From Acetobacteraceae bacterium (lineage in GTDB: Bacteria; Pseudomonadota; Alphaproteobacteria; Acetobacterales; Acetobacteraceae), in assembly GCA_025352375.1 (NCBI GenBank), contig JANXTL010000281.1, positions 1-41,638 on the forward strand: a stretch of 41,638 bases of DNA, read 5' to 3'. The translations under genes were made by a program, and so were the position numbers. The notes beneath the pieces were generated by a model. That model was not told the DNA's origin. It made no database searches and saw only the letters and a program-made list of their open reading frames with translations. This document shows, piece after piece, positions 13,862 to 31,303 of the stretch (its first letter is position 1; every line of letters begins with the position of its first letter).

Positions 13862-14380
13862 TGCTGGAGCAATTTCCTCCTTTGCCCGTTCGCCTGAGCC
13901 TCTCGACCATGACACTCTGCCTGCTGCTCGCGGTTGCGCGCGGTCTGGTGAGCAACTCTCGCGCATCGTACGATCCAAAGAATTAACGATCTGGTGGCGT
14001 AGGACCGCGAGTGCGTGTCGGCCTGTTTCCTGTAGTTCGCCGCCGCGCCGCGTGCACAGTGCCCGCGAAAACGGGACGGAAAACGAGACGACCATGGCGG
14101 TGGCCGTCCAGATGACGCGCATCGCCTCCGCTTTGGGCGTGGCACCGGCCGCCGCCGCCGAGATGGTGCGCACCAATCCTGGTGCCGTGGAGGGGCTGAC
14201 GCCCGACGACCCGATGTCTCGAAATATTGAACCAGCCTACTATAACATATTTGGGAGCGGTCTTGCCAACTTAATGGCGGGGGGTTTAAGGTTCGTTCAT
14301 TCGGGTCATGAGATGTCCAACCCCACCTGAGCGAGGTCGGGGTTGACGATTAGGTGACTTGCAGAATGAGGAAAATGCCG
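13862..14380. other. Long intergenic region with small doubtful frames
   Basis: About 520 nt without a recognisable gene. A 41-codon frame (13861-13986) has a short hydrophobic stretch. A frame from 14094 (MAVAVQMTRIASALG) runs to 14330 but resembles nothing known. Base composition becomes clearly less GC-rich from about 14220 (for example ATTGAACCAGCCTACTATAA), marking the left edge of the atypical patch that holds the next two genes. The promoter for 14381 is expected here. Confidence 0.5.
14318..14345. terminator. GC-rich hairpin upstream of lipoprotein gene
   Basis: CAACCCCACCT pairs with AGGTCGGGGTTG (one bulged base) around a GAGCG loop. There is no T-run on either side. It could be a weak terminator or a leader structure of the gene starting at 14381. 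Confidence 0.4.
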
Positions 14381-20244: not shown

Positions 20245-21021
20245 TCAGCGACTCGGCGCGACGATGCCGAAATGGGCGCCTTGCGGATCGGTGCATTGGA
20301 CGATCCACTGCCCGCCAGGCACTTCCATCGGCCCGTTTACGATGGTGCCGCCAGCGCGAGTAACCCGAGCGGCGGCGGCGTCGATGGCCTCGGCGTTAAT
20401 GTAGAAGCCCCAGCAAGGGACGGGCATCTCCGGCATTTTGGTCATCATGCCGCCGCGGGTGACGCCGTCCTTGGCGAACAACTGGTAAACGCCCATTGGG
20501 CCCATATCGTGGGCTTCAGCCTTGGTCCAGCCGAACATCGTGACGTAAAAGGCGAAGTCGGCAGGCATGTCGCCGGCCATCAGTTCGCGCCAGCCGATGT
20601 TACCAGGGGCGTCCGGCGCCAAACCGGGGCCAGGCGGTGTGGGGCTGCCGGGCTTGAACAGAATGAACACTGCGCCATGCGGATCGGCAACGACGGCGAA
20701 CCGGCCAATGCCGGGGATGTCGTCGGCCGGCTTGTGCACCGAACCGCCGGCGGCGGTCAGCCGCTTCACATCGGCATCGACGTCGTCGGATCCGATGTAG
20801 CCGGTCCAGCAGGGCGGGACGCCCGTCGCCTTGGCATCGTCCGGCAGCCGCATCAACCCACCGACCCCCGTCGAGCCGACCGAGAGCACGGTATATTCGT
20901 GGCCGGGAACGCCGGGATCGGCCATGTTCCAGTCGAAGACCGCCTTGTAGAAGGCGCGGCCGGCGTCCGGGTCTGAGGTCATCACGTCGTACCATAGGAA
21001 GTCACCGGGGACGCTGCTCAT
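20245..21021 (-). CDS. Tandem VOC (glyoxalase/bleomycin-resistance fold) protein
   Basis: This 258-residue protein consists of two vicinal-oxygen-chelate modules (about residues 5-120 and 135-258). Each has the strand pattern beginning FLWYDVMTSDPDAGRAFY or IGWRELMAGDMPADFAFY, and each ends with a DP.GA.F box (VVADPHGAVF and QCTDPQGAHF). ATG 21021 excludes 20 residues encoded by the operator region. Family functions include metal-dependent lyases, dioxygenases and drug binding. It is transcribed divergently from marR and upstream of the GyrI-like gene, so a role in tolerance to or conversion of an organic compound is likely. Confidence 0.92.
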   Translation of the reverse strand: MSSVPGDFLWYDVMTSDPDAGRAFYKAVFDWNMADPGVPGHEYTVLSVGSTGVGGLMRLPDDAKATGVPPCWTGYIGSDDVDADVKRLTAAGGSVHKPADDIPGIGRFAVVADPHGAVFILFKPGSPTPPGPGLAPDAPGNIGWRELMAGDMPADFAFYVTMFGWTKAEAHDMGPMGVYQLFAKDGVTRGGMMTKMPEMPVPCWGFYINAEAIDAAAARVTRAGGTIVNGPMEVPGGQWIVQCTDPQGAHFGIVAPSR

Positions 21022-21048
21022 CGTTGGACTCTCCAAGTGTTGACGGGA

Positions 21049-21066
21049 TATGTTGATATCAACATA
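21049..21066. promoter_or_regulatory. Perfect 18-bp palindrome, likely MarR operator
   Basis: TATGTTGATATCAACATA is a perfect inverted repeat with no spacer, placed in the 53-nt gap between the divergent VOC and marR starts and ending 8 nt before the marR ATG. MarR dimers bind 16-20-bp palindromes of this kind, usually repressing both flanking genes. The local AT-richness contrasts with the flanks. Confidence 0.8.
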
Positions 21067-21074
21067 CTGGCGAT

Positions 21075-21533
21075 ATGTCAAACCCCGAATCGGTGCCCTA
21101 CGCCACCACGATTCACGTCCGCGACCACTGCCTGTGCCTGCACACCCAGCGGGCGGCGCGTTTTATGGCGCGCCTGTTCGATGACGTTCTGCGGCCGTTC
21201 GGGCTGACCAACGGGCAGTTTTCGACGATGATGGCGCTCAACCGGCCGGAGCCCGCGAAGATGGCCGGTGTCGCGACGCTGCTGGGCATGGACCGCACCA
21301 CCCTGACGGCGGCGCTGAAGGTACTGAATCGACGGGGATGGATCGTGGTCGCCGCCGACCCCAGGGACAAGCGCGGCCAGCTGCTGAGCTTGACTTCGGA
21401 AGGTCGGCAAGTGCTGGCAAGCGCGATGCCGGCATGGGAGCAAACACACGCGACAATCGCGGGGCGGGTCGGCGACGCAGACCGTTTGCGACGGGACCTG
21501 TCGTCAGTCGTTGGCGACCTTTACCCCGGTTAG
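21075..21533 (+). CDS. MarR family transcriptional regulator
   Basis: This 152-residue winged-helix regulator has an N-terminal dimerisation helix (VRDHCLCLHTQRAARFMARLFDD). The recognition region is GVATLLGMDRTTLTAALKVLNRRGW (about 66-90), and the wing is VAADPRDKRGQLLSLTSEGR. It is divergent from the VOC-GyrI-like operon across a palindrome, the classic autorepressed MarR layout. Cys19 and Cys21 in CLCLH could make it redox- or electrophile-responsive, which is inference. Its last 30 nt overlap the convergent remnant gene at 21504. Confidence 0.94.
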   Translation: MSNPESVPYATTIHVRDHCLCLHTQRAARFMARLFDDVLRPFGLTNGQFSTMMALNRPEPAKMAGVATLLGMDRTTLTAALKVLNRRGWIVVAADPRDKRGQLLSLTSEGRQVLASAMPAWEQTHATIAGRVGDADRLRRDLSSVVGDLYPG

Positions 21534-21683
21534 CCGCTCGTAAACCTTCACCACCGCGGAGCCTTCTTCCTTGCGCCGGCCGCGAGGGTCGTGCACCACA
21601 AGTTTCACGCCGGCCTTCAACAGGTTGCGGGCCATTGGGCCAGCCATGTTGCCAAGGCCCACGAAGCCTACTTTGCCGGTCAT
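21504..21683 (-). pseudogene. Internally deleted 3-hydroxyisobutyrate dehydrogenase-like gene
   Basis: A 59-codon intact frame begins with the exact N-terminus of NAD-dependent beta-hydroxyacid dehydrogenases (MTGKVGFVGLGNMAGPMARN, Rossmann loop). After HDPRGRRKEE it passes directly into what looks like the family C-terminus, GSAVVKVYERLTGVK. About 230 central residues, including the catalytic Lys region, are missing, so no dehydrogenase activity is possible. A ribosome-like GGGGACAC precedes the ATG, so a micro-protein could still be made. The end overlaps marR by 30 nt. Confidence 0.75.
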
Positions 21684-21696
21684 CGGTGTGTGTCCC

Positions 21697-22119
21697 CTAT
21701 GCGTGGATCGTTGTCGGCGTCCAATTGGCCGCGCGGCGGGCAATGCGGCTTTGCACCGTTTCACCGTCGTGATCCGTCGACGCCGGCACGCCGGTGAAAA
21801 GCGCCCAGTCTTCCAAACAGTTCGTGTTGGTCACCATCCGCGTGCCGCCGTCCGTTTCGGTGACGGCGCCGAGGTAGATGCCGCAACGACGGCAGACCAG
21901 GAAATCGGCCGTGCCGGTGCCGAACCGGTAACGGGAAACCTCCGCCCAGTCCTCGGCCCAAATCTCCGCCGCGCCGTTCGGATCGCTGGCCGTGCGCGTC
22001 TGGTTCGCTCGACAGAACGAACAGCCGCAGGCGCGGAGCTTTATCGCCTCCGGCCGTTGCGTCAAACGCAAAGTGAGGCGCAGGTTGCCGCAATGGCAGC
22101 CCCCTTTATGGGTGCTCAT
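21697..22119 (-). CDS. GFA family zinc protein (second of pair)
   Basis: This 140-residue protein has the glutathione-dependent formaldehyde-activating/CENP-V fold. Zinc cysteines are in CHCGN (residues 8-10), ACGCSFC (31-36) and CRRCG (76-79). ATG 22119 overlaps the stop of the upstream GFA gene (ATGA). The name reflects the family founder; most members have no proven formaldehyde activity. It is co-transcribed with a paralogue that is only distantly similar, so the two are not a recent duplication. Confidence 0.92.
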   Translation of the reverse strand: MSTHKGGCHCGNLRLTLRLTQRPEAIKLRACGCSFCRANQTRTASDPNGAAEIWAEDWAEVSRYRFGTGTADFLVCRRCGIYLGAVTETDGGTRMVTNTNCLEDWALFTGVPASTDHDGETVQSRIARRAANWTPTTIHA

Positions 22120-22553
22120 GACTTGCCTCCAACGGGATAGGCTTGGCCAGTGGGGTAGCTGTCGAAGCGCGGGGCATCGACGTGGTCCCAGGGTTGGGCG
22201 CTTTGCATGAAGATGTCGGCGTCCGGTTTGAACCAGCTTGGATCGTCCAGGGTGGTGACGCGCAGGCCGACGATTTCTGGTTTGGTGGACACCTGCACGT
22301 AGAGGGGGGTGCCGCAGTCGCCGCAGAAGATTCTCGAGATATCGTTGCCGCTGTCGGCTTTGTTCACATAGCGCTTCGGCGTGCCCTGGACGATGCGGAA
22401 CCCCGCACTGGGCATGCGCGCGGCGGGCACGTGGGCCGCGCCACTTGCCCGCTGGCAGTCGCGGCAATGACAGCGGAGGGTGAAGACCGGCTCCCCCTCG
22501 GTTTCGTAGCGGATGGCGCCGCAGAGGCAGCCACCGGTTCTGGGTTGGGACAT
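22116..22553 (-). CDS. GFA family zinc protein (first of pair)
   Basis: This 145-residue GFA-fold protein starts at ATG 22553, MSQPRTGGCLCGAIRYE. The zinc-binding motifs are CLCG near residue 9, RCHCRDCQ near 28 and FCGDCGTPLY near 76. The C-terminal half has the usual TLDDP..FKP and W....R..SYP segments. ATG at 22583 would add ten residues and is less family-like. It faces the LLM oxidoreductase at 22643, so both may share a control region in 22554-22642. Confidence 0.93.
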   Translation of the reverse strand: MSQPRTGGCLCGAIRYETEGEPVFTLRCHCRDCQRASGAAHVPAARMPSAGFRIVQGTPKRYVNKADSGNDISRIFCGDCGTPLYVQVSTKPEIVGLRVTTLDDPSWFKPDADIFMQSAQPWDHVDAPRFDSYPTGQAYPVGGKS

Positions 22554-22642
22554 GGTTGTTGGCTCCCTGGATGATGGCGGCATACTGGCCGGGTTACGGG
22601 TGGTATGCCAAGGTTCGGGCCTGGCGATGCGGAGCGTGTGTT

Positions 22643-23488
22643 TTGAAGTTCGGGATTTCGTTGTTCTTCACTGAAGAATCAATCCGGCCGCAGGTGCTCG
22701 CACCCGAGCTGGAACGGCGCGGGTTCGAGTCCGTGTGGTCGGGCGAGCACTCCCACATTCCGGAGGTGCTGACATCCGCTCCCCCCGCGAGCGGGATGAA
22801 GCGCTGGTATTACGAGGTCATGGACCCCTTCGTGACGCTGACGGCGGCAGCGATGGCGACGCACACGCTGAAGATCGGCACGGGGGTGTGTTTGATCCCG
22901 CAACGCGATCCGATTCAGACGGCGAAGCTGGTGGCGTCGATCGACCAGGTCTCCGGCGGGAGATTTCTGTTTGGGGTTGGAAACGGGTGGAACCGGGCGG
23001 AGATCGAGAACCATGGAACAGTGTTCGCGACGCGGCACAAGCGGGCGCGGGAGAGCATCGAGGCGATGAAGGCGATCTGGACACAGTCGAAAGCGGAATA
23101 TCATGGGGAGATCGTTCAGTTCGATCCGATGATGGCATGGCCCAAGCCGATGCAGAATCCATTTCCGCCCATCCTGGTCGGTGGTTCGTTTCCCTATTCC
23201 GCTCGGCGGGCGATTAATTACGGTACCGGATGGTTGCCGAGCACACCGAATGGAAAGACGGATATTCTGGAGGAGATACCGAGGTTCCGGCAGATGGCAG
23301 CGGAGGCTGGGCGGGATCCGGCTTCGTTGCCGATTACGGTCTGGTATCCGCCCCGGAATTTGGAACTGATGAAGAAGTACCGGGATGCGGGGGTCGAGCG
23401 GGTGGTGTTCAGCGTGCCGTCCGACCCGGCGGACGTGGTGATGCCGCATTTGGATGAGATTGGGGGGGTGATGGCGGGGGTGTCGTGA
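22643..23488 (+). CDS. LLM-class F420-type oxidoreductase
   Basis: This 281-residue luciferase-like protein shows family segments FESVWSGEHSHIPEV, LKIGTGVCLIPQRDPIQTAK, LVASIDQVSGGRFLFGVGNGW and PPILVGGSF. The best N-terminus is LKFGISLFFTEESI, read from TTG 22643 behind GGAGCG; the frame is open further upstream but that sequence does not look like the family. The pattern resembles the Rv2161c-like group that binds F420 or FMN; the cofactor cannot be settled here. It is divergent from the GFA pair. Confidence 0.9.
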   Translation: MKFGISLFFTEESIRPQVLAPELERRGFESVWSGEHSHIPEVLTSAPPASGMKRWYYEVMDPFVTLTAAAMATHTLKIGTGVCLIPQRDPIQTAKLVASIDQVSGGRFLFGVGNGWNRAEIENHGTVFATRHKRARESIEAMKAIWTQSKAEYHGEIVQFDPMMAWPKPMQNPFPPILVGGSFPYSARRAINYGTGWLPSTPNGKTDILEEIPRFRQMAAEAGRDPASLPITVWYPPRNLELMKKYRDAGVERVVFSVPSDPADVVMPHLDEIGGVMAGVS

Positions 23489-23489
23489 A

Positions 23490-23844
23490 GGGCGATCGGG
23501 CGACGACCATGAAGGCCCGATCCGGTTCGTCGGACATGGAGGACGATGCGGCAGTGCGTTCGACATCGATCGAAGATTGCTCAATCATGCCAGCGACAGC
23601 CTCATACGGTCTCTCGCCCTGCTCGATCGCCACTATTTCGGCGGCGCCCGACAATGGGAGCGCCCCCAGGCGCCTTTCGTTCCCCGCCCGGTTTATCGGG
23701 TGAGAACGACACGGTCGGCCGCATCCGCTGCAACAAAATGTCGCGTGCTTCGGGCAGATAAACGGCTTTGAGGTCGAAGTCGGAACGCGGGGTGGCCGTC
23801 CCGTAAAGGTGCGAGATGAATCGCATCTCCACGATCGGGTCCAT
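23490..23844 (-). pseudogene. Collapsed nucleotidyltransferase gene
   Basis: The minus-strand frame begins MDPIVEMRFISHLYGTATPR and continues SDFDLKAVYLPEARDILLQR, the N-terminus of a Pol-beta-type nucleotidyltransferase with its SDFD metal motif. After about residue 60 the frame is lost. In the next frame the sequence AAEIVAIEQGERPYEAVAGM continues to SSSMSDEPDRAF, which looks like the C-terminal part of the same family. The central region is missing, and the extreme C-terminus is replaced by the end of the LLM gene. It lies 17 nt downstream of argG on the same strand. Confidence 0.7.
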
Positions 23845-23861
23845 CGGATCGACGAGCGCCC

Positions 23862-25091
23862 TTACAGTCCCCCGCCTTTTCTCCCCACCATCGCCCCCAG
23901 CCGCAGCCGCAACGCGTTCAGCTTAATGAACCCCGCCGCATCGACCTGATCGTAAGCCCCCTGATCGTCCTCGAACGTCACCACCCGCGTATCGTACAGG
24001 GAGTGCGGCGACTCTCGCCCAATGCAAGAAACATTGCCTTTATACAACTTCAACCGAACCCGCCCGCTCACCGACTTCTGCGACGTATCGATCAACGCCT
24101 GCAACATCCGCCGCTCGGGGCTGAACCAGAACCCGTTATAAATCAACTCGGCGTACCGAGGCATCAAACTGTCCTTCAGATGCCCAGCCTCCCGGTCCAG
24201 CGTGATGCTCTCCATCGACCGGTGCGCCACCAGAAGAATAGTGCCGCCAGGCGTCTCGTAGACCCCGCGGGACTTCATCCCCACGAACCGGTTCTCTACC
24301 AGGTCCAGCCGCCCGATGCCGTTGGCCTTTCCCAGCTCGTTCAGCCGGGTCAGCAGCGACGCCGGAGACAACCGAACCCCGTCGATCGCCACGGGATCCC
24401 CGCCCTCGAAATCGACGGAGATCACGGTCGCCTTATCCGGCGCATCCTCCGGCCGGATGGTGCGCTGGTAGACGATTTCGTCCGCCTCGATCGCCGGGTC
24501 TTCCAGGATTTTGCCCTCGGAGGACGAGTGCAGCATGTTGGCGTCGACGCTGAACGGGGCCTCCCCGCGTTTGTCCTTCGAAATTGGAATCTGATGGGTC
24601 TCGGCGAATTCGAGCAAGCGGGTGCGGCTGGTCAGCTCCCATTCGCGCCACGGTGCGATGATTTTGATGTCCGGTTTCAGGGCATAGTAGGATAACTCGA
24701 AGCGCACCTGATCGTTGCCCTTGCCGGTCGCGCCGTGCGCCACCGCGTCGGCGCCGACCATTTCCGCGATCTCGATCTGGCGCTGGGCGATCAGCGGGCG
24801 GGCAATCGATGTCCCAAGCAAATACTGCCCCTCGTAGACCGTATTCGCCCGAAACATCGGGAACACGAAATCGCGGACAAACGTCTCGCGCAAATCGTCG
24901 ACAAAAATTTCCTTCACGCCGGCCATCTCGGCCTTCTTGCGGGCGGGCTCCAGCTCCTCCCCCTGGCCGAGGTCGGCGGTGAAGGTCACCACCTCGCATT
25001 TGTAGGTGGTTTGCAGCCAGCGCAGGATCACGCTGGTATCCAGCCCGCCGGAGTAGGCGAGCACGATTTTCTTCACATCCTTGACGGCCAT
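23862..25091 (-). CDS. argG: Argininosuccinate synthase
   Basis: The 409-residue enzyme condenses citrulline and aspartate using ATP in arginine synthesis. The start at ATG 25091 gives the conserved [20 protein letters not shown], whose SGGLDTS is the PP-loop. Further segments are [16 protein letters not shown] near 120, APWREW, DEAP-type acceptor region [10 protein letters not shown] and SPERRMLQ near the end. Frames extending upstream of 25091 lack conservation. It is divergent from the TPR gene at 25178. Length matches the bacterial family. Confidence 0.97.
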
Positions 25092-25177
25092 CGGCGGGGT
25101 CTCCTTGACGGCGGGCAGGTAGCGCGGTCGTGTCTTAGTGGCAAGCGCGCCGATCGTACCGCACCAGGAGACGCCCC

Positions 25178-26458
25178 ATGCCCACCGACCGCTACGGCCT
25201 TTCGCTGTCCACTCAGTCCGACGCCTCGGCGACAGCCTACACCGAGGCTTGCAATCTGCTGCTGACCCTTTATCCCGGTGCCGGCGACGCGTTCGATCGG
25301 GCAATCGAGGCCGATCCGGACTTCGCCCTGGCGCATGCCGGTAAAGCGCGGCTGCTGCAACTCAGCGGCAATATCCCGGCGGCGCGGGAGGCCATTGCCA
25401 CTGCCGCCGCATGCCCCGCCAACGAGCGCGAGGCCAGCCATATCGGCGTGTTTCAAGTGCTGCTCGACGGTAATGCCTTCCCCGCGGTCTGCGCCCACAC
25501 CGAACGCTGGCCCACCGACGCGATGATCCTCGCCACCACCGCCAACCAGCTCGGCCTCATCGGCATTTCGGGCCGCGCCGGCCGCGTTCAGGAACTGGCG
25601 GCGTTCCTCGACCGGCTCGCCCCGGCGTATGGCGACGACTGGTGGTTCGGCGCCCATCACGGCATGGCGGTCTCGGAAGCCGGCCGGCACGCCGAGGCTC
25701 GGCGTATCGTCGAGCGCTCCCTCGCGGGCAATCGGCACAACGGGTCGGTCGCGCATTCCTACGCGCATGTCTGCTACGAAGATGGTCACCCCGATGAAGG
25801 GATCGCGTTCATCCGCGACTGGCTGCCCGGCTACACCCGCTTCGGCGGTATGTACGGCCACCTGAACTGGCATCTGGCCCTGTTCGAACTGCACCGCGGC
25901 AACGCGGACGAAGGCATGCGCATGTTCGGCGACAGCTTCGGGGCCGAGGACTACCCCGGCCCCCTCCCCAATAAAATGTTCGACGCCGCCGCCTTCCTGT
26001 GGCGGTCGGAATTGGCGGGGCACAAGCGCGACGAAGCCCGCTGGGCCATGTTGCGGGATTTCGCCCACGCCAGCTTCCCGCAACCTGGCTTGAACCTGCT
26101 CGACTGGCACGTCGCGCTGGCCGAGGCTGTCGCCGGCGACACCGAAACGCTGGAATCCCGCCTGCGGACCATCGAAGACCGCGCCGCCCAAGGCCGCTAC
26201 GGCGCCGGCAGCACCATCCCCGACGCCGCCCGCGCCTTCGCGGCGTTCGAGCGCAAGGATTTCGCGACCGCCATCGACCTGCTGGAACGGCTATTACCCG
26301 AGCGGGAACGGATTGGCGGCAGCAACGCGCAGATCGATTTGGTGGAGTTCACCCTGCTGCGCGCCTACATCCTGGCCGGGCGACGGGATACAGCCGAGCA
26401 GTTGCTGGGCGCTCGGCGACCCGGCGCGGTGGGTGCTCCGGTCGCGGGGTTCCACTAA
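25178..26458 (+). CDS. TTC38-like tetratricopeptide repeat protein
   Basis: This 426-residue all-helical protein starts [27 protein letters not shown]-like helix pairs run through the chain ([54 protein letters not shown]). The block GHLNWH in the middle is typical of the TTC38 family, which also occurs in proteobacteria. There is no signal peptide. The function of bacterial members is unknown. It is divergent from argG and followed at 26 nt by the aminotransferase, so the two may be one transcript. Confidence 0.88.
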
Positions 26459-26484
26459 CCGCGCGGGCAACGCAAGATGGCGGC

Positions 26485-27654
26485 ATGTCATTGCCCCCGC
26501 TCTCCCCGCGCATCCGCGCCACCTTCGCCGCCCCCATCCCCACCGCCAAGGCCTGGGCTTTGCGCTACGACGGGCGGGCGGGGCCAACGATCGATCTGAC
26601 GCAGGCGGTACCGGGGTATCCGACGCACCCCGACCTCGCTTTGAGGTTAGCCGAGGGGGCGGAGTCCCCGATCCAGGCGCGCTACGGCACCATCGATGGG
26701 GATGAGGCACTGCGGGCGGCTCTGGCGGCGGACATCGACCGCGTCTACGGGGCGGATATCGGCGCGGGCGACGTAGCGATCACCGCCGGTGCCAATCTGG
26801 CGTTCACCATGGCCATGACCGTGCTGTGCGGCGTGGGCGACCAAGTGATGCTGCCAGTGCCCTGGTATTTCAATAATGCCATGGCGCTGACCATGCAGGG
26901 ACTGGAGCCGCTGCCGCTGCCCTGTCTCGCCGAGGACGGCTTCATCCCCGACCCCGAGCGCGCGGCGGCGCTGCTGACCGAGCGCACGCGGGCCATCGTG
27001 TTGATCAGCCCCAATAACCCCACCGGGGCAGTCTACCCGCCGGACGTCATCGCCCGTTTCGCAGCTTTGTGCCGCGCTCGAGGAATTTGGCTGATCGTGG
27101 ACGAGTCCTATCGCGACTTCCTACCCGAAAGAACGGTTCCGCACACCCTGTTCCAGGACCCGGATTGGCGGGATTACGTTGTGCATCTGTATTCGTTCTC
27201 GAAGGCCTACTGCGTCGCTGGCCACCGGGTTGGCGCGATGGTGTGCGGGCCCCGGGTGCGCGCTGAATTAAACAAAGTCCTGGACACCATGCAGATATGC
27301 CCCCCGCGAGGCCCCCTGCCCGGCCTGACCTGGGCGATCGACAACCTCCACGACTGGAAAGCCGGCAACCGCGCCATCATCGCGGAACGTGCGCGCGTGT
27401 TCCGCGACGGTGTGGGTCGTTTGCAGGACTGGAAGATCGATGCCCTAGGCACCTACTTCGCCTATTTGCGCATCCCCGAAGCCGCGTCCGACGCGATGGC
27501 TGTGGGCGAGGCCCTGGCCTCGGAATGCGGGCTGCTGTCGCTGGTGGGGCCGTTCTTCGGGCCGGGGCAGGAGCGGCATCTGCGGCTGGCGTTCGCGAAC
27601 GCGGACCTGGAGGCGATTGCCGCGGTGCCCGAGCGGTTGCGGGCGTTGCGATAA
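26485..27654 (+). CDS. PLP-dependent aminotransferase, class I/II
   Basis: This 389-residue fold-type I aminotransferase carries the PLP lysine Lys240 in YSFSKAYCVAGHRVG. ISPNNPTGAVYP near 170 and VDESYRDF near 204 hold the ring-binding Asn and Asp, and HLRLAFAN near the end holds the substrate-carboxylate Arg. ATG 26485 (MSLPPLSPRIRATFAAP) is chosen because longer frames run through the TPR gene. The substrate is unassigned; the family includes aspartate, aromatic and alanine aminotransferases. Confidence 0.93.
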   Translation: MSLPPLSPRIRATFAAPIPTAKAWALRYDGRAGPTIDLTQAVPGYPTHPDLALRLAEGAESPIQARYGTIDGDEALRAALAADIDRVYGADIGAGDVAITAGANLAFTMAMTVLCGVGDQVMLPVPWYFNNAMALTMQGLEPLPLPCLAEDGFIPDPERAAALLTERTRAIVLISPNNPTGAVYPPDVIARFAALCRARGIWLIVDESYRDFLPERTVPHTLFQDPDWRDYVVHLYSFSKAYCVAGHRVGAMVCGPRVRAELNKVLDTMQICPPRGPLPGLTWAIDNLHDWKAGNRAIIAERARVFRDGVGRLQDWKIDALGTYFAYLRIPEAASDAMAVGEALASECGLLSLVGPFFGPGQERHLRLAFANADLEAIAAVPERLRALR

Positions 27655-27724
27655 AGGCGAGTCCGGGTTAAGCTACTCGCCAGTAGGTCCGCTAAACGAC
27701 CTGTAAGGGTTGGAGTAACCAGCA

Positions 27725-27973
27725 ATGTCCGCCACAATCGACGCTCCTGCCCGCGAGTACGACACCGTCGTCATTGGGGCCGGGGTGTCCGGCCTTTATC
27801 AGCTTTACCGGTTGCGCGAACTCGGCCTCAAAACCCGGGTGTTCGAGGCCGGCAGCAACGTGGAAGGAAAACAGACCCGCAAAGTCATGGGCTACGGCGG
27901 CAGTTTTCCGTCGTTCCGGGAACATTGCGACGGGGTGGTTGCCGACGCGTATCGCGGCTTGGTAATGGCCTGA
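27725..27973 (+). pseudogene. Internally deleted flavin monooxygenase mini-gene
   Basis: An 82-codon intact frame with a GGAG site begins like a Baeyer-Villiger monooxygenase (YDTVVIGAGVSGLYQLYRLR, FAD Rossmann loop). At about residues 43-46 (EAGSNVEG) it jumps to the family C-terminus: NVEGKQTRKVMGYGGSFPSF through YRGLVMA. That tail aligns with the last 40 residues of the intact neighbour (NVEGRNVRRVLQYQGGAPQY to YAGMVLG). Roughly 450 residues are missing in frame. It cannot be an active oxygenase. It ends 18 nt before the intact paralogue, so a tandem duplicate has collapsed. Confidence 0.85.
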
Positions 27974-27991
27974 GCCGAAGGAGTTCCATTG

Positions 27992-29632
27992 ATGCTCGAT
28001 ACCACCGTCGCACCGTCCGTTGCGGCCAAAACCACCACCTTCGACGCCATCGTCATCGGCGGAGGCATCGCGGGGATTTACCAGCTGTATCGCCTGCGGG
28101 CGCTTGGGCTGTCGGTGCGGGTGTTCGAGACCGGCGGCGGCGTCGGCGGCACCTGGTATTGGAACCGCTACCCCGGTGCTCGGTTTGACTCGGAAAGCTA
28201 CACCTACGGCTACGCGTTCTCCGACGACCTGTTGCGGGATTGGAACTGGAGCGAGCATTTCGCGCCGCAACCGGAAACCGAGCGGTATTTGAACCATGTG
28301 GTGGATCGGTTCGATCTGCGCCGGGATATTCAGTGCCATAGCCGCGTCGCCTCGGCCGCGTGGGATGAGAGCGTCCGTCAGTGGGACGTGGTGTTGGACG
28401 ATGGCAAATCGTATCGATGCCGGTTTTTAATCACCGCCGTGGGGCCGCTGTCGGCGGATACGTTGCCGCGGTTCGAGGGGATCGGAGATTTCAAGGGCCG
28501 GTCGTTCCATACATATCGCTGGCCGCATGAGGCCATCGATTTCTCCGGCAAGCGCGTCGCGGTGATAGGCACCGGCGCGACCGGGGTGCAGGTGATCCAG
28601 ACCATTGCGCCTCTGGTTGGATCGCTGACCGTGTTTCAACGCACCGCCAACTGGTGCACGCCGTTGCACAACAAGAAGATCGCCGAAGAAGAGCAGGCTA
28701 AGATCAAGGCCGGCTATCCCGCGATGTTCGATCTGCTGCGGCGTACCCCTGGCTGCTACATCCACGACACCGATCCTCGGGGCACGTTCGAGGTAACGCC
28801 CGAAGAGCGGGAGGCGAATTGGGAGCGGCTGTATGCCGAGCCGGGGTTCAGCATCTGGATGGCGAATTTCCGGGATGTGCTGACAGATTTAAAGGCCAAC
28901 GCGCTGTTCAGCGCGTTCGTCGCGAACAAGATCCGCCAACGGGTGAAAGATCCGGTCGTGGCGGAACGACTGATCCCGAAAAACCACGGGTTCGGGACGC
29001 GGCGGGTGCCCCAGGAGACCGGGTATTACGAGGTCTACAACCTGCCGCATGTGGAGCTGGTGGCCACGGTGGAAACGCCGATCTTGCAGGTTACTCCAAA
29101 CGGTATCGCGTGTTCGGACCAGTCTTACGATTTCGATATCATCATCTATGCCACCGGGTTCGATGCCGTTCTGGGGTCGTTCGACCGCATCGATATCCGT
29201 GGGGTCGGCGGCGTGACGTTGAAAGAGCATTGGGCGGTTGGGCCGAAGACCTACCTCGGCATGATGTCGGCAGGGTTCCCGAATTTGCTCACGATCGTGG
29301 GGCCGCACAATGCCTCCACCCGTTGCAACATCCCTCGGTGTATCGAGCAAAACGTGGACTGGGCGTCCGATTTGGTTCGTTACGTGGGGGCGCATGGGAT
29401 TACGCGGTTCGAAGCGATGCCGGACGCCGAGGCGGAATGGTCGCGGCATGTCGAGGAACTCGCGGCGGGGATGCTGTATACGCAGGTGGATTCGTGGCTG
29501 ACCGGGATCAACACGAATGTCGAGGGGCGGAACGTGCGGCGGGTGCTGCAATATCAGGGCGGCGCGCCGCAGTATCGGGAGCGGTGCGACGCGGTGGCAG
29601 CGGCAGGCTATGCGGGGATGGTTTTGGGGTAG
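27992..29632 (+). CDS. Baeyer-Villiger-type flavin monooxygenase
   Basis: The 546-residue class B flavoprotein has the FAD Rossmann motif VIGGGIAG (22-29), the GGTWYWNRYPGARFDSES segment, the Baeyer-Villiger fingerprint FKGRSFHTYRWP (167-178) and the NADPH motif VIGTGATG (191-198). FDIIIYATGFDA follows near 380. It would insert oxygen next to a carbonyl, turning ketones into esters or lactones. ATG 27992 is 9 nt from AAGGAG; a TTG at 27989 is the alternative. It is co-oriented with its collapsed paralogue and close to acyl-CoA dehydrogenases, which suits catabolism of a ketone. Confidence 0.95.
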   Translation: MLDTTVAPSVAAKTTTFDAIVIGGGIAGIYQLYRLRALGLSVRVFETGGGVGGTWYWNRYPGARFDSESYTYGYAFSDDLLRDWNWSEHFAPQPETERYLNHVVDRFDLRRDIQCHSRVASAAWDESVRQWDVVLDDGKSYRCRFLITAVGPLSADTLPRFEGIGDFKGRSFHTYRWPHEAIDFSGKRVAVIGTGATGVQVIQTIAPLVGSLTVFQRTANWCTPLHNKKIAEEEQAKIKAGYPAMFDLLRRTPGCYIHDTDPRGTFEVTPEEREANWERLYAEPGFSIWMANFRDVLTDLKANALFSAFVANKIRQRVKDPVVAERLIPKNHGFGTRRVPQETGYYEVYNLPHVELVATVETPILQVTPNGIACSDQSYDFDIIIYATGFDAVLGSFDRIDIRGVGGVTLKEHWAVGPKTYLGMMSAGFPNLLTIVGPHNASTRCNIPRCIEQNVDWASDLVRYVGAHGITRFEAMPDAEAEWSRHVEELAAGMLYTQVDSWLTGINTNVEGRNVRRVLQYQGGAPQYRERCDAVAAAGYAGMVLG

Positions 29633-29641
29633 GGTCGCGGC

Positions 29642-30227
29642 TCAGATTCCAGGCCCCCCGATATCGGCGGGCCGGCGGGCAAACCTGGACCAGAGCAGTC
29701 CGATAACGATCGTCATCGCGATCAGCGTGGACAAGACCCCGAACATCCGGCGCGGCGCTGGGCCGGCCGCCCAACATCACATCGGAGCCCAACAGCCGAA
29801 ACGCTGGACTCGCGATCGTGAACGGCGATGGCCCCGGCAAACCAACCCGCTTCGGGGGCCACCCGTCGGGCGATGCACCAGACGCAGACTACGGTCGCCG
29901 CCACCCCAACAGCTCGGGTACCACGCCCAATCGGGCGTCCACGCGCGTAACGGCCATGATGAAGCCGAGCACCAGGGGATGGAGCGGCGGCCATGTCACC
30001 TCCCGCGTGGCGGCCGTCAGGACACCGACCGGGTCGAGGTCGCGGAGGGCCAGCGCGATATCGATGCCGCGCGACAGATGGGTGTTACGATCGTGATACG
30101 GGTCGTGCCACAGGGTTGCCGGGTTGTTCCAATTGTCCAGGAAGAGGCCGCCGGCGATCCCCAGGGATATGGCGGCGATGAGCCAGATCGTCGCATTGCC
30201 GCCGGACGACGGCTTACAAGGCGTCAC
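29642..30227 (-). pseudogene. Decayed membrane glycosyltransferase-like gene
   Basis: On minus, the N-terminal part is readable: a hydrophobic segment IWLIAAISLGIAGGLFLDNW, then ALRDLDPVGVLTAATREVTW and PPLHPLVLGFIMAVTRVDAR, as in polytopic RgtA/PMT-like glycosyltransferases. Frameshifts near 29915 and 29835 move the reading into VAATVVCVWCIARRVAPEAG and then TIASPAFRLLGSDVML. A third shift near 29755 leads into MFGVLSTLIAMTIVIGLLW, a membrane helix, and the stop at 29642-29644. The large middle is missing. It starts 5 nt after the acyl-CoA dehydrogenase stop. Confidence 0.7.
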
Positions 30228-30232
30228 CTACC

Positions 30233-31303
30233 CTACCACCCCATGGCATCCGCCATCTGCCGCCGCTGCCACCCCGGCGAGCCGAGCAGCTCGTACATCG
30301 ACCGGGAAATCCGCGTATAAAGCGTCAACCCGAACCTCGGATCGCTCCCAATCGCGGCATGCACCTCATGCGCCGCGTTCGCCGCCTCGATCGCGCTGTC
30401 GCAGGCGGTGGAGCACGCCAGATAGCTCCGCCCCACGCCGTTCCGCCCGGATTCGATCGCCCAGGCCGCCTCGTAGACCGCCCACTTCGCCGCATCCATG
30501 GCGTTCAGCAGCCGGATGATATGGTCCTGCACCCGCTGGAACCGCCCGATCGGGGTGCCGAACTGTACGCGGGTGTTGCTGTGCGCCACCGACATATCCA
30601 GCATTTCCATCATCCCGCCCACCTGATAGGCGGCAGCCACGATCCGCGCGACCGAAAGCGAGTGATCGAACGACACCGCCCCAGGACGGAGCAAAGCCCC
30701 AACAGCTACGCCCGAGAACGTCACCTCATACGCCGCCTGAATAAATCCCCCCAACAACCGCACAGAAGCCGCCTCAGCCGGCACGATCGCCAACCCACCC
30801 TCGACAGTCACCAGAAAATGCGTCGCCGCCGCCGCGAACGGCACGAAAACCTTAACCCCCGTCAGCAACCCATCCACCAACGAAGAACCAGTCGCCGCCA
30901 CGCCCTTCCAGGACGAAGCCGGCTGCCGCAACGCCGGGATCAAAATCATCGTCCCGTCCGCGATCGCCGTCAGCGCGGCATCCCGCTGTTCCGACTCAGC
31001 GCACCCCAGCAACAACCCCACGGACATCGCGCTCGACGCCAGCAACGGGCTGGGCACCGCGCCGCGGCCGAGTTCCTCGAAGATCAGCGCCGCACTCAGC
31101 GGGTCCAGCTCCAACCCGCCGCAAGATGCCGGCACCAACGCGCCGGTCCACCCGGCCTCGGCGAACAAAGTCTGCCAAGCCGGATCCCAAACCTCCCCGG
31201 CCCCCGCCTGGCGCACCAGTTCCGCTCGGGGAACATGCCGCTGCACAAAAATCCGCACGCTGTCGCGGATCAACACCTGCGAATCAGACAGAGAAAGATC
31301 CAT
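30233..31303 (-). CDS. Acyl-CoA dehydrogenase-like subunit (short)
   Basis: This 356-residue protein has the acyl-CoA dehydrogenase fold: N-terminal helices (MDLSLSDSQVLIRDSVRIFV), GALVPASCGGLELD, then the C-terminal four-helix bundle (AYQVGGMMEMLDMSVAH, RVQFGTPIGRFQRVQDHI). The canonical C-terminal (Y/H)xGT loop with catalytic Glu is absent, and the middle beta domain is divergent. It is coupled at 3 nt to a full acyl-CoA dehydrogenase gene, so the pair probably forms a heteromer, as in the steroid-type FadE pairs. By itself it may lack a complete active site. Confidence 0.88.
   Translation of the reverse strand: MDLSLSDSQVLIRDSVRIFVQRHVPRAELVRQAGAGEVWDPAWQTLFAEAGWTGALVPASCGGLELDPLSAALIFEELGRGAVPSPLLASSAMSVGLLLGCAESEQRDAALTAIADGTMILIPALRQPASSWKGVAATGSSLVDGLLTGVKVFVPFAAAATHFLVTVEGGLAIVPAEAASVRLLGGFIQAAYEVTFSGVAVGALLRPGAVSFDHSLSVARIVAAAYQVGGMMEMLDMSVAHSNTRVQFGTPIGRFQRVQDHIIRLLNAMDAAKWAVYEAAWAIESGRNGVGRSYLACSTACDSAIEAANAAHEVHAAIGSDPRFGLTLYTRISRSMYELLGSPGWQRRQMADAMGW

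What the first reader, a model, noticed from the sequence alone, without database searches (positions are those of the whole stretch)
21504..30227. Four genes collapsed to their two ends within 9 kb
At 21504-21683, 23490-23844, 27725-27973 and 29642-30227 the N- and C-terminal ends of unrelated families (beta-hydroxyacid dehydrogenase, nucleotidyltransferase, flavin monooxygenase, membrane glycosyltransferase) are preserved while the middle is lost. Two are still intact open frames. Ordinary decay scatters frameshifts and truncates one end; repeated loss of only the interior suggests a specific deletion process, for example short-homology deletion, or selection to keep the gene ends with their overlapping signals. 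All junctions lie in otherwise intact gene neighbourhoods.
Basis: partly seen in the sequence, partly recalled or inferred. Interest (0 to 1): 0.72.

Follow-up and report, generated by a model that had tools for sequence, protein, structure and literature searches.

The report
Four genes with missing middles
Four neighbouring bacterial genes have each lost their middle and kept scraps of both ends, which is most simply leftover DNA from ordinary deletions that could not spread because intact genes sit tightly on both sides.

Summary
In a genome whose sister is an Acetobacteraceae MAG, four genes in 8.7 kb keep both ends and lack the middle: a hydroxyacid dehydrogenase (R1), a RlaP-like nucleotidyltransferase (R2), a flavin monooxygenase (R3) and a membrane protein (R4, C-terminal end only moderately supported). 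R1 and R3 have intact counterparts between the same neighbours in sister species, lost 714 and 1371 nt in frame, and look recent; R2 and R4 are frameshifted, and intact homologues were found only elsewhere. R1's junction has a likely 5-nt microhomology; R3's is ambiguous (3 nt exact in the nearest orthologue, up to about 11); R2 and R4 are unresolved. 'Only the interior is lost' needs no special process: intact genes overlap or lie within 70 nt, so in a simple model 73-97% of neighbour-sparing deletions of these sizes leave both ends (56-86% if 30 nt of each must remain). A fifth broken gene in the window decays the ordinary way. Four in 9 kb is denser than in my partial scan, but the window was picked for it and that scan covered few genes. 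Verdict: separate deletions, filtered by selection on flanking genes; the clustering is unexplained.

The parts
21504..21683 (-). R1: hydroxyisobutyrate/2-hydroxy-3-oxopropionate dehydrogenase-type gene reduced to its first ~32 and last ~25 codons, still an open frame of 59 aa
   Evidence: Pfam NAD_binding_2 on the N-terminal part; full-length genes next to the same GFA gene in G009 and G001
21569..21573 (.). R1 deletion junction; CCTTG
   Evidence: alignment of both flanks with five homologues: N-terminal-side flank has CCTTG in 5 of 5, C-terminal-side flank in 3 of 5 (G009 has CCTT, G007 TTG at the same place)
23508..23844 (-). R2: RlaP-like nucleotidyltransferase gene reduced to ~60 N-terminal and ~50 C-terminal codons, frame changed at the junction
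   Evidence: tblastn with the G025 homologue; Pfam RlaP on that homologue
27725..27973 (+). R3: flavin/Baeyer-Villiger-type monooxygenase gene reduced to ~46 N-terminal and ~39 C-terminal codons, still an open frame of 82 aa
   Evidence: intact orthologue directly upstream of the same second monooxygenase gene in G016
27854..27864 (.). R3 deletion junction; 3 nt exact (CAA) in the nearest orthologue, up to about 11 nt if the lost parental codons were AGC and AAC
   Evidence: both flanks of G016 and of 40 named loci, G016's MAG included
29642..30227 (-). R4: membrane protein gene (glycosyltransferase name unverified) reduced to ~155 N-terminal and ~40 C-terminal codons, with two further frame changes in the N-terminal part
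   Evidence: homologues in G066 and G342
21697..22119 (-). intact GFA-family gene ending 13 nt upstream of R1
21075..21533 (+). intact MarR-family gene whose 3' end overlaps the 3' end of R1
22643..23488 (+). intact luciferase-like monooxygenase gene, convergent with R2
23862..25091 (-). intact argininosuccinate synthase gene ending 17 nt upstream of R2
26485..27654 (+). intact aminotransferase gene ending 70 nt upstream of R3
27992..29632 (+). intact second flavin monooxygenase gene between R3 and R4
30233..31303 (-). intact acyl-CoA dehydrogenase gene ending 5 nt upstream of R4
13870..14330 (+). fifth broken gene, decaying by frame changes, a small deletion and loss of a recognisable C-terminal part (outer limits approximate)

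Best explanation
The four are pseudogenes of dispensable accessory genes. Shown: pieces of both ends of each family are present (R4's C-terminal end moderately so) and about 0.6 to 1.4 kb of interior is missing; R1 and R3 have intact versions between the same neighbours in sister species. Inferred: each was made by a separate deletion, probably joined at short direct repeats (replication slippage, single-strand annealing or end joining; the genome encodes Ku and LigD). Deletions that reached a flanking gene were removed by selection, so what survives in such tightly packed positions is a deletion whose two ends fall inside the dead gene. R1, R2 and R4 each follow a same-strand gene by 5-17 nt and face a convergent gene, so nothing downstream depends on them; R3 is followed by a gene whose likely ribosome-binding site starts a few nt after R3's stop codon. 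R1 and R3 are probably recent; R4 is older.
For: Intact counterparts in place: R1 in G009 and G001, R3 in G016. Likely CCTTG microhomology at R1; random deletions inside three intact homologues give 5 nt or more in 0.7-1.0% and 3 nt or more in 6.3-7.8%. Published spontaneous Salmonella deletions had 6-15 bp homology in 19 of 30 and 4 bp or less or none in 11 of 30 (PMC3386194, passages). Geometry: both ends left in 0.92, 0.95, 0.73 and 0.97 of allowed placements; with at least 30 nt of each end left, 0.61, 0.80, 0.56 and 0.86. Ends of R1 and R3 differ from intact homologues with pN/pS 0.06-0.18, within the range of the intact comparisons (0.05-0.28). Different states of decay point to separate events. 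A sister genome (G009) has a likely independent case, an in-frame interior-deleted hydantoinase-B-like gene. The slots are variable: G016 has an unrelated gene at the R2 position and G003 only 37 nt at the R4 position. Ku and LigD lie on one contig.
Against: Four in 9 kb is dense: my scan of 1.58 Mb of own and sister sequence found one likely case elsewhere, none of it in the 242 kb of own sequence outside the window; but only 25-34% of genes there had a homologue in the query set. [quoted passage not shown] R2 and R4 have no intact copy at the same locus, so for them deletion in place is inferred. Junction homology could not be read at R2 and R4, and at R3 the nearest orthologue gives only 3 nt exact, which chance gives in about 6% of placements.
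Confidence: 0.75

Rival explanations
1. A lineage- or locus-specific deletion process, for example end joining by Ku and LigD after local breaks, repeatedly hollows genes in this region.
For: Four cases in 9 kb against one likely case in a partial scan of 1.58 Mb; Ku and LigD are encoded; microhomology at R1 and possibly R3.
Against: Different states of decay, no common junction motif seen, the window was chosen for the cluster, ordinary decay occurs in the same window, and the geometry alone predicts the interior pattern.
Confidence: 0.12
2. The ends, or the small proteins of 59 and 82 aa, are kept because they do something (mini-protein, overlapping signal, translational coupling).
For: R1 and R3 are in frame (1 in 9 by chance for both) and their ends have low pN/pS; the likely ribosome-binding site of the next gene lies a few nt after the R3 stop codon.
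Against: Low pN/pS is expected if the deletions are recent; both lack nearly the whole fold; R2 and R4 are frameshifted; promoter-like and terminator-like sites in 21000-30600 are no more numerous than in shuffles (2 against a mean of 1.8, 7 against 6.9), although one of each lies inside R2.
Confidence: 0.08
3. Assembly error in a metagenome-type assembly joined reads across short repeats.
For: The genome is in 355 contigs; no junction-spanning match was among the listed rows in the other 32 genus genomes (the list was cut).
Against: Repeats of 3 to 11 nt are far shorter than assembly words (general knowledge); R4 carries further frame changes; flanks are collinear with several relatives.
Confidence: 0.05

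Closest known systems
Bacterial pseudogenes made by deletion (Salmonella survey, PMC2916853; passages seen)
   Same: Gene remnants between conserved neighbours; deletions are named as the main force of erosion, and deletions that take a neighbour are not seen by such a comparison
   Different: [quoted passage not shown] these lost about 60-85%
Spontaneous deletions between short repeats (PMC3386194, passages seen; PMC5426353, title and abstract start in a search listing)
   Same: Short homology at the endpoints (likely at R1, possible at R3)
   Different: RecA independence not tested here; two of four junctions unresolved
Bacterial end joining by Ku and LigD (recalled)
   Same: Both genes are encoded, on one contig
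   Different: No junction feature here separates end joining from slippage or annealing

Membership tests
Pseudogene by internal deletion | Both ends of one protein family present, interior missing | tested here: met
   R1, R2, R3 clear; R4 N-terminal part clear, C-terminal end moderate
Pseudogene by internal deletion | Intact orthologue between the same neighbours in a relative | tested here: inconclusive
   Met for R1 (G009, G001) and R3 (G016); not met for R2 (G025 copy on another contig than argG) and R4 (only own of 33 genus genomes)
Pseudogene by internal deletion | Reading frame or most of the fold lost | tested here: met
   R1 and R3 are 238 and 457 codons shorter than the G009 and G016 genes; R2 and R4 also change frame
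Short-homology deletion | Direct repeats of a few to about 15 nt at the endpoints | tested here: inconclusive
   Likely 5 nt at R1; 3 nt exact to about 11 nt at R3; R2 and R4 unresolved
Short-homology deletion | Occurs without RecA | not testable with these tools
   needs a genetic experiment
Ku/LigD end joining | Genome encodes Ku and LigD | tested here: met
Ku/LigD end joining | Junctions depend on Ku | not testable with these tools
   needs a genetic experiment

The most novel reading that the evidence does not exclude
This stretch, or this lineage, hollows dispensable genes by one repeated end-joining or short-homology process that acts far more often here than elsewhere, so that interior collapse, not frameshift, is its main way of losing genes.
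Probability: 0.1. Interest if true: 0.5.

Novelty: new member of a known kind. Interest (0 to 1): 0.27.

Why it matters
It shows how neighbour spacing can shape the look of dead genes in compact genomes: where genes are packed within tens of bases, surviving large deletions must begin and end inside the dead gene. That gives a simple null model (spacing plus deletion length) for anyone who sees 'gene ends preserved' and suspects a special process. If the density seen here held genome-wide it would also mark a lineage that loses genes mainly by large deletions.

Tried and rejected
Recombination between the two tandem monooxygenase genes as the origin of R3: rejected, because the C-terminal piece and the whole second gene align as one collinear block with G016 (27853-29627 to 1932-155). 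One single event for all four: unlikely, because R1 and R3 are open and lightly changed while R4 has two further frame changes. A first reading of the R3 joint as six or more nt was weakened: the nearest orthologue has only CAA exact, and the codon before GTC/GTG on the left flank is GGC in 27 of 42 rows and AAT in 5 of 42. R2 and R4 joints: not readable from one or two distant homologues. Two weak extra hits of the scan (G003 L189 19747-19965; G016 L077 323-749) were not checked. An unbiased rate for the genome was not reached: homologue coverage outside the window stayed at 25-34% of genes (a first pass with stricter gene calls had 18-27% for own, G016 and G009 and 60% for the smaller G003 set). 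The list of intergenic hits was not worked through, so I have no ratio of interior losses to end truncations. The first genome-contig scan for R4 relatives found none. Four literature searches listed no paper that, by title or abstract start, is on interior-only gene collapse; that is a limit of those terms and that library, not proof of absence.
Full report
What was given. The window is the whole of contig C307 of a 5.1 Mb, 355-contig genome, 98% complete. Its same-genus relative G016 corresponds to a MAG titled uncultured Acetobacteraceae bacterium isolate Umea_bin-06648 in the named collection (100% match over 539 residues on a contig of the same 5000-base length), so the window very likely belongs to that family; no name was seen for the window itself.

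The four remnants. R1 (21504-21683, minus) is an open frame of 59 aa. Its N-terminal part hits Pfam NAD_binding_2, and the 297-aa homologue of G009 carries both NAD_binding_2 and NAD_binding_11; residues 1-32 and 273-297 match, the 240 between do not. R2 (homology 23508-23844, minus) matches residues 1-60 and 261-310 of a 326-aa G025 protein with a RlaP nucleotidyltransferase hit; the two pieces are in different frames. R3 (27725-27973, plus) is an open frame of 82 aa that matches residues 1-48 and 501-539 of the 539-aa flavin monooxygenase of G016. R4 (29642-30227, minus) has an N-terminal part of about 155 codons that changes frame twice and a C-terminal piece of about 40 codons in a third frame. 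The N-terminal part is clear against G066 and G342. The C-terminal piece scored as high in 1 of 1000 shuffles against the G342 end but in 123 of 1000 against the G066 end.

Are these deletions in place? For R1, G009 and G001 carry the full gene next to the same GFA gene. For R3, G016 carries, in order, the aminotransferase, a full first monooxygenase and the second monooxygenase; the window aligns collinearly on both sides of one gap (26493-27863 and 27853-29627). The R2 family was found in 2 of 33 genus genomes (own and G025), in G025 on a different contig from argG. The R4 family was found in 1 of 33 genus genomes (own) and in 3 of 397 family genomes, own included. At the R2 slot G016 has an unrelated open frame with repeats (lectin-like by recall), and at the R4 slot G003 has 37 nt. 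These look like turnover slots for accessory genes (inference).

Junctions. R1: the window reads CCTTG at 21569-21573. The N-terminal-side flank has CCTTG in 5 of 5 homologues aligned, the C-terminal-side flank in 3 of 5 (G001, G032, G017), with CCTT in G009 and only TTG in G007. A repeat of 5 nt is the likely joint. R3: the window reads CAGCAACGTGG at 27854-27864. In G016 the two flanks share only CAA exactly, inside an imperfectly matching block. Over 40 named loci (G016's MAG included) the left flank gave 42 rows, with GGC before GTC/GTG/GTT in 27 and AAT in 5; the right flank gave 40 rows, with AAC-GT in 30. So the shared stretch is 3 nt if the lost parent was like G016, and up to about 11 nt if it had AGC and AAC there. 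In simulated random deletions inside three intact homologues, 3 nt or more occurred in 6.3-7.8%, 4 or more in 2.2-2.9% and 5 or more in 0.7-1.0%; these figures do not allow for my freedom in placing the joint. R2 and R4 could not be resolved.

Why only the interior? With deletion sizes entered as R1 717, R2 600, R3 1371 and R4 1370 nt, and gaps to the neighbouring coding sequences entered as 0 to 70 nt, 92, 95, 73 and 97% of placements that spare both neighbours leave at least 1 nt of both gene ends, and 61, 80, 56 and 86% leave at least 30 nt. The products are about 0.62 and 0.24. So the pattern is unremarkable once the neighbours must stay intact. The R2 and R4 sizes and the R4 gene length (1900) are estimates. 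The neighbours are Pfam-recognised open genes. R1, R2 and R4 each follow a same-strand gene by 13, 17 and 5 nt and face a convergent gene; R3 lies between two same-strand genes.

Age. pN/pS of the R1 ends against G009 is 0.12 and 0.12 (N-terminal end against G001 0.06), of the R3 ends against G016 0.18 and 0.08. The intact second monooxygenase gives 0.18 overall and the intact G009-G001 dehydrogenase pair 0.20; all intact comparisons span 0.05-0.28. So R1 and R3 were probably under ordinary constraint for most of the time since the species split. That they are still constrained cannot be excluded, and the counts are small.

How unusual? A tblastn scan with open frames of 150 aa or more from all held stretches, against 242 kb of own sequence outside the window, 302 kb of G016, 369 kb of G009 and 666 kb of G003, looked for two-ended hits with a missing interior. 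Besides three of the four window remnants (R4 was not returned) it gave three other places: one likely case, an in-frame interior-deleted hydantoinase-B-like gene in G009 (L168 2600-3499, matched at 38-44% to an own-genome homologue; family name recalled), and two weak ones not checked. None lay in the own sequence outside the window. Only 45 of 182 (own), 76 of 226 (G016), 77 of 284 (G009) and 140 of 498 (G003) genes had a homologue in the query set, against 28 of 34 in the window, for which I had fetched homologues on purpose. So the rate elsewhere is an underestimate, and the window was selected for its cluster. The density here is higher than that estimate, but I cannot give a fair probability.

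Counter-examples to interior-only decay. At about 13870-14330 the window holds a fifth broken gene: its G016 counterpart is an open frame of 523 aa, of which 473 aa were scanned, with no Pfam hit and a weak ClpP-related hit far below that model's cut-off (22.7 against 120 bits). The window copy has frame changes and a small deletion, and nothing beyond residue 226 was recognised. In G009 the glyoxalase-like gene beside R1's counterpart matches only over its first 40 residues.

Mechanism. Ku (in a 272-aa open frame) and LigD (in an 892-aa open frame) lie on contig C112 within 200 nt of each other by their matched parts, so end joining is possible, but slippage or annealing would explain the joints equally well. 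Passages of PMC3386194 report 6-15 bp homology at 19 of 30 spontaneous Salmonella deletions and 4 bp or less, or none, at 11 of 30. [quoted passage not shown] The first point makes these four atypical in extent; the second is the same survivor effect invoked here.

Verdict. Observation confirmed with small corrections; interpretation partly supported. The specific-process reading is kept as the novel case at 0.1.

Noticed in passing
window 13870-14330 (+): A fifth broken gene, related to a 523-aa G016 open frame (weak ClpP-related hit below cut-off); frame changes, a small deletion and no recognisable C-terminal part.
   Followed up: partly
L168 2600-3499 (G009:C83): A likely in-frame interior-deleted hydantoinase-B-like gene in a sister species: about 225 N-terminal and 46 C-terminal matched residues in one open frame (family name recalled).
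   Followed up: partly
L081 6722-6841 (G009:C229): Only the first 40 residues of the glyoxalase-like gene are matched beside the intact dehydrogenase gene that corresponds to R1.
   Followed up: partly
window 21501-21533: The 3' end of the MarR-family gene overlaps the 3' end of R1, and the match to G016 contig C63 stops at 21501, so a rearrangement boundary may lie here.
   Followed up: no
G000:C112 3290-4766 (L120): LigD and Ku matches close together at the end of a 4.8 kb contig of the own genome.
   Followed up: partly
L102 2215-4374, L103 2211-4061: Homologues of R4: large hydrophobic proteins sharing a D-PYHDRN-like stretch; the G066 one had no Pfam, NCBIfam or PDB sequence match and the G342 one no Pfam match; family found in 3 of 397 family genomes including the window's own.
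   Followed up: partly
window 23560-23588 and 23660-23673 (+): One promoter-like and one terminator-like match lie inside R2, not more than shuffles give for the region as a whole.
   Followed up: no
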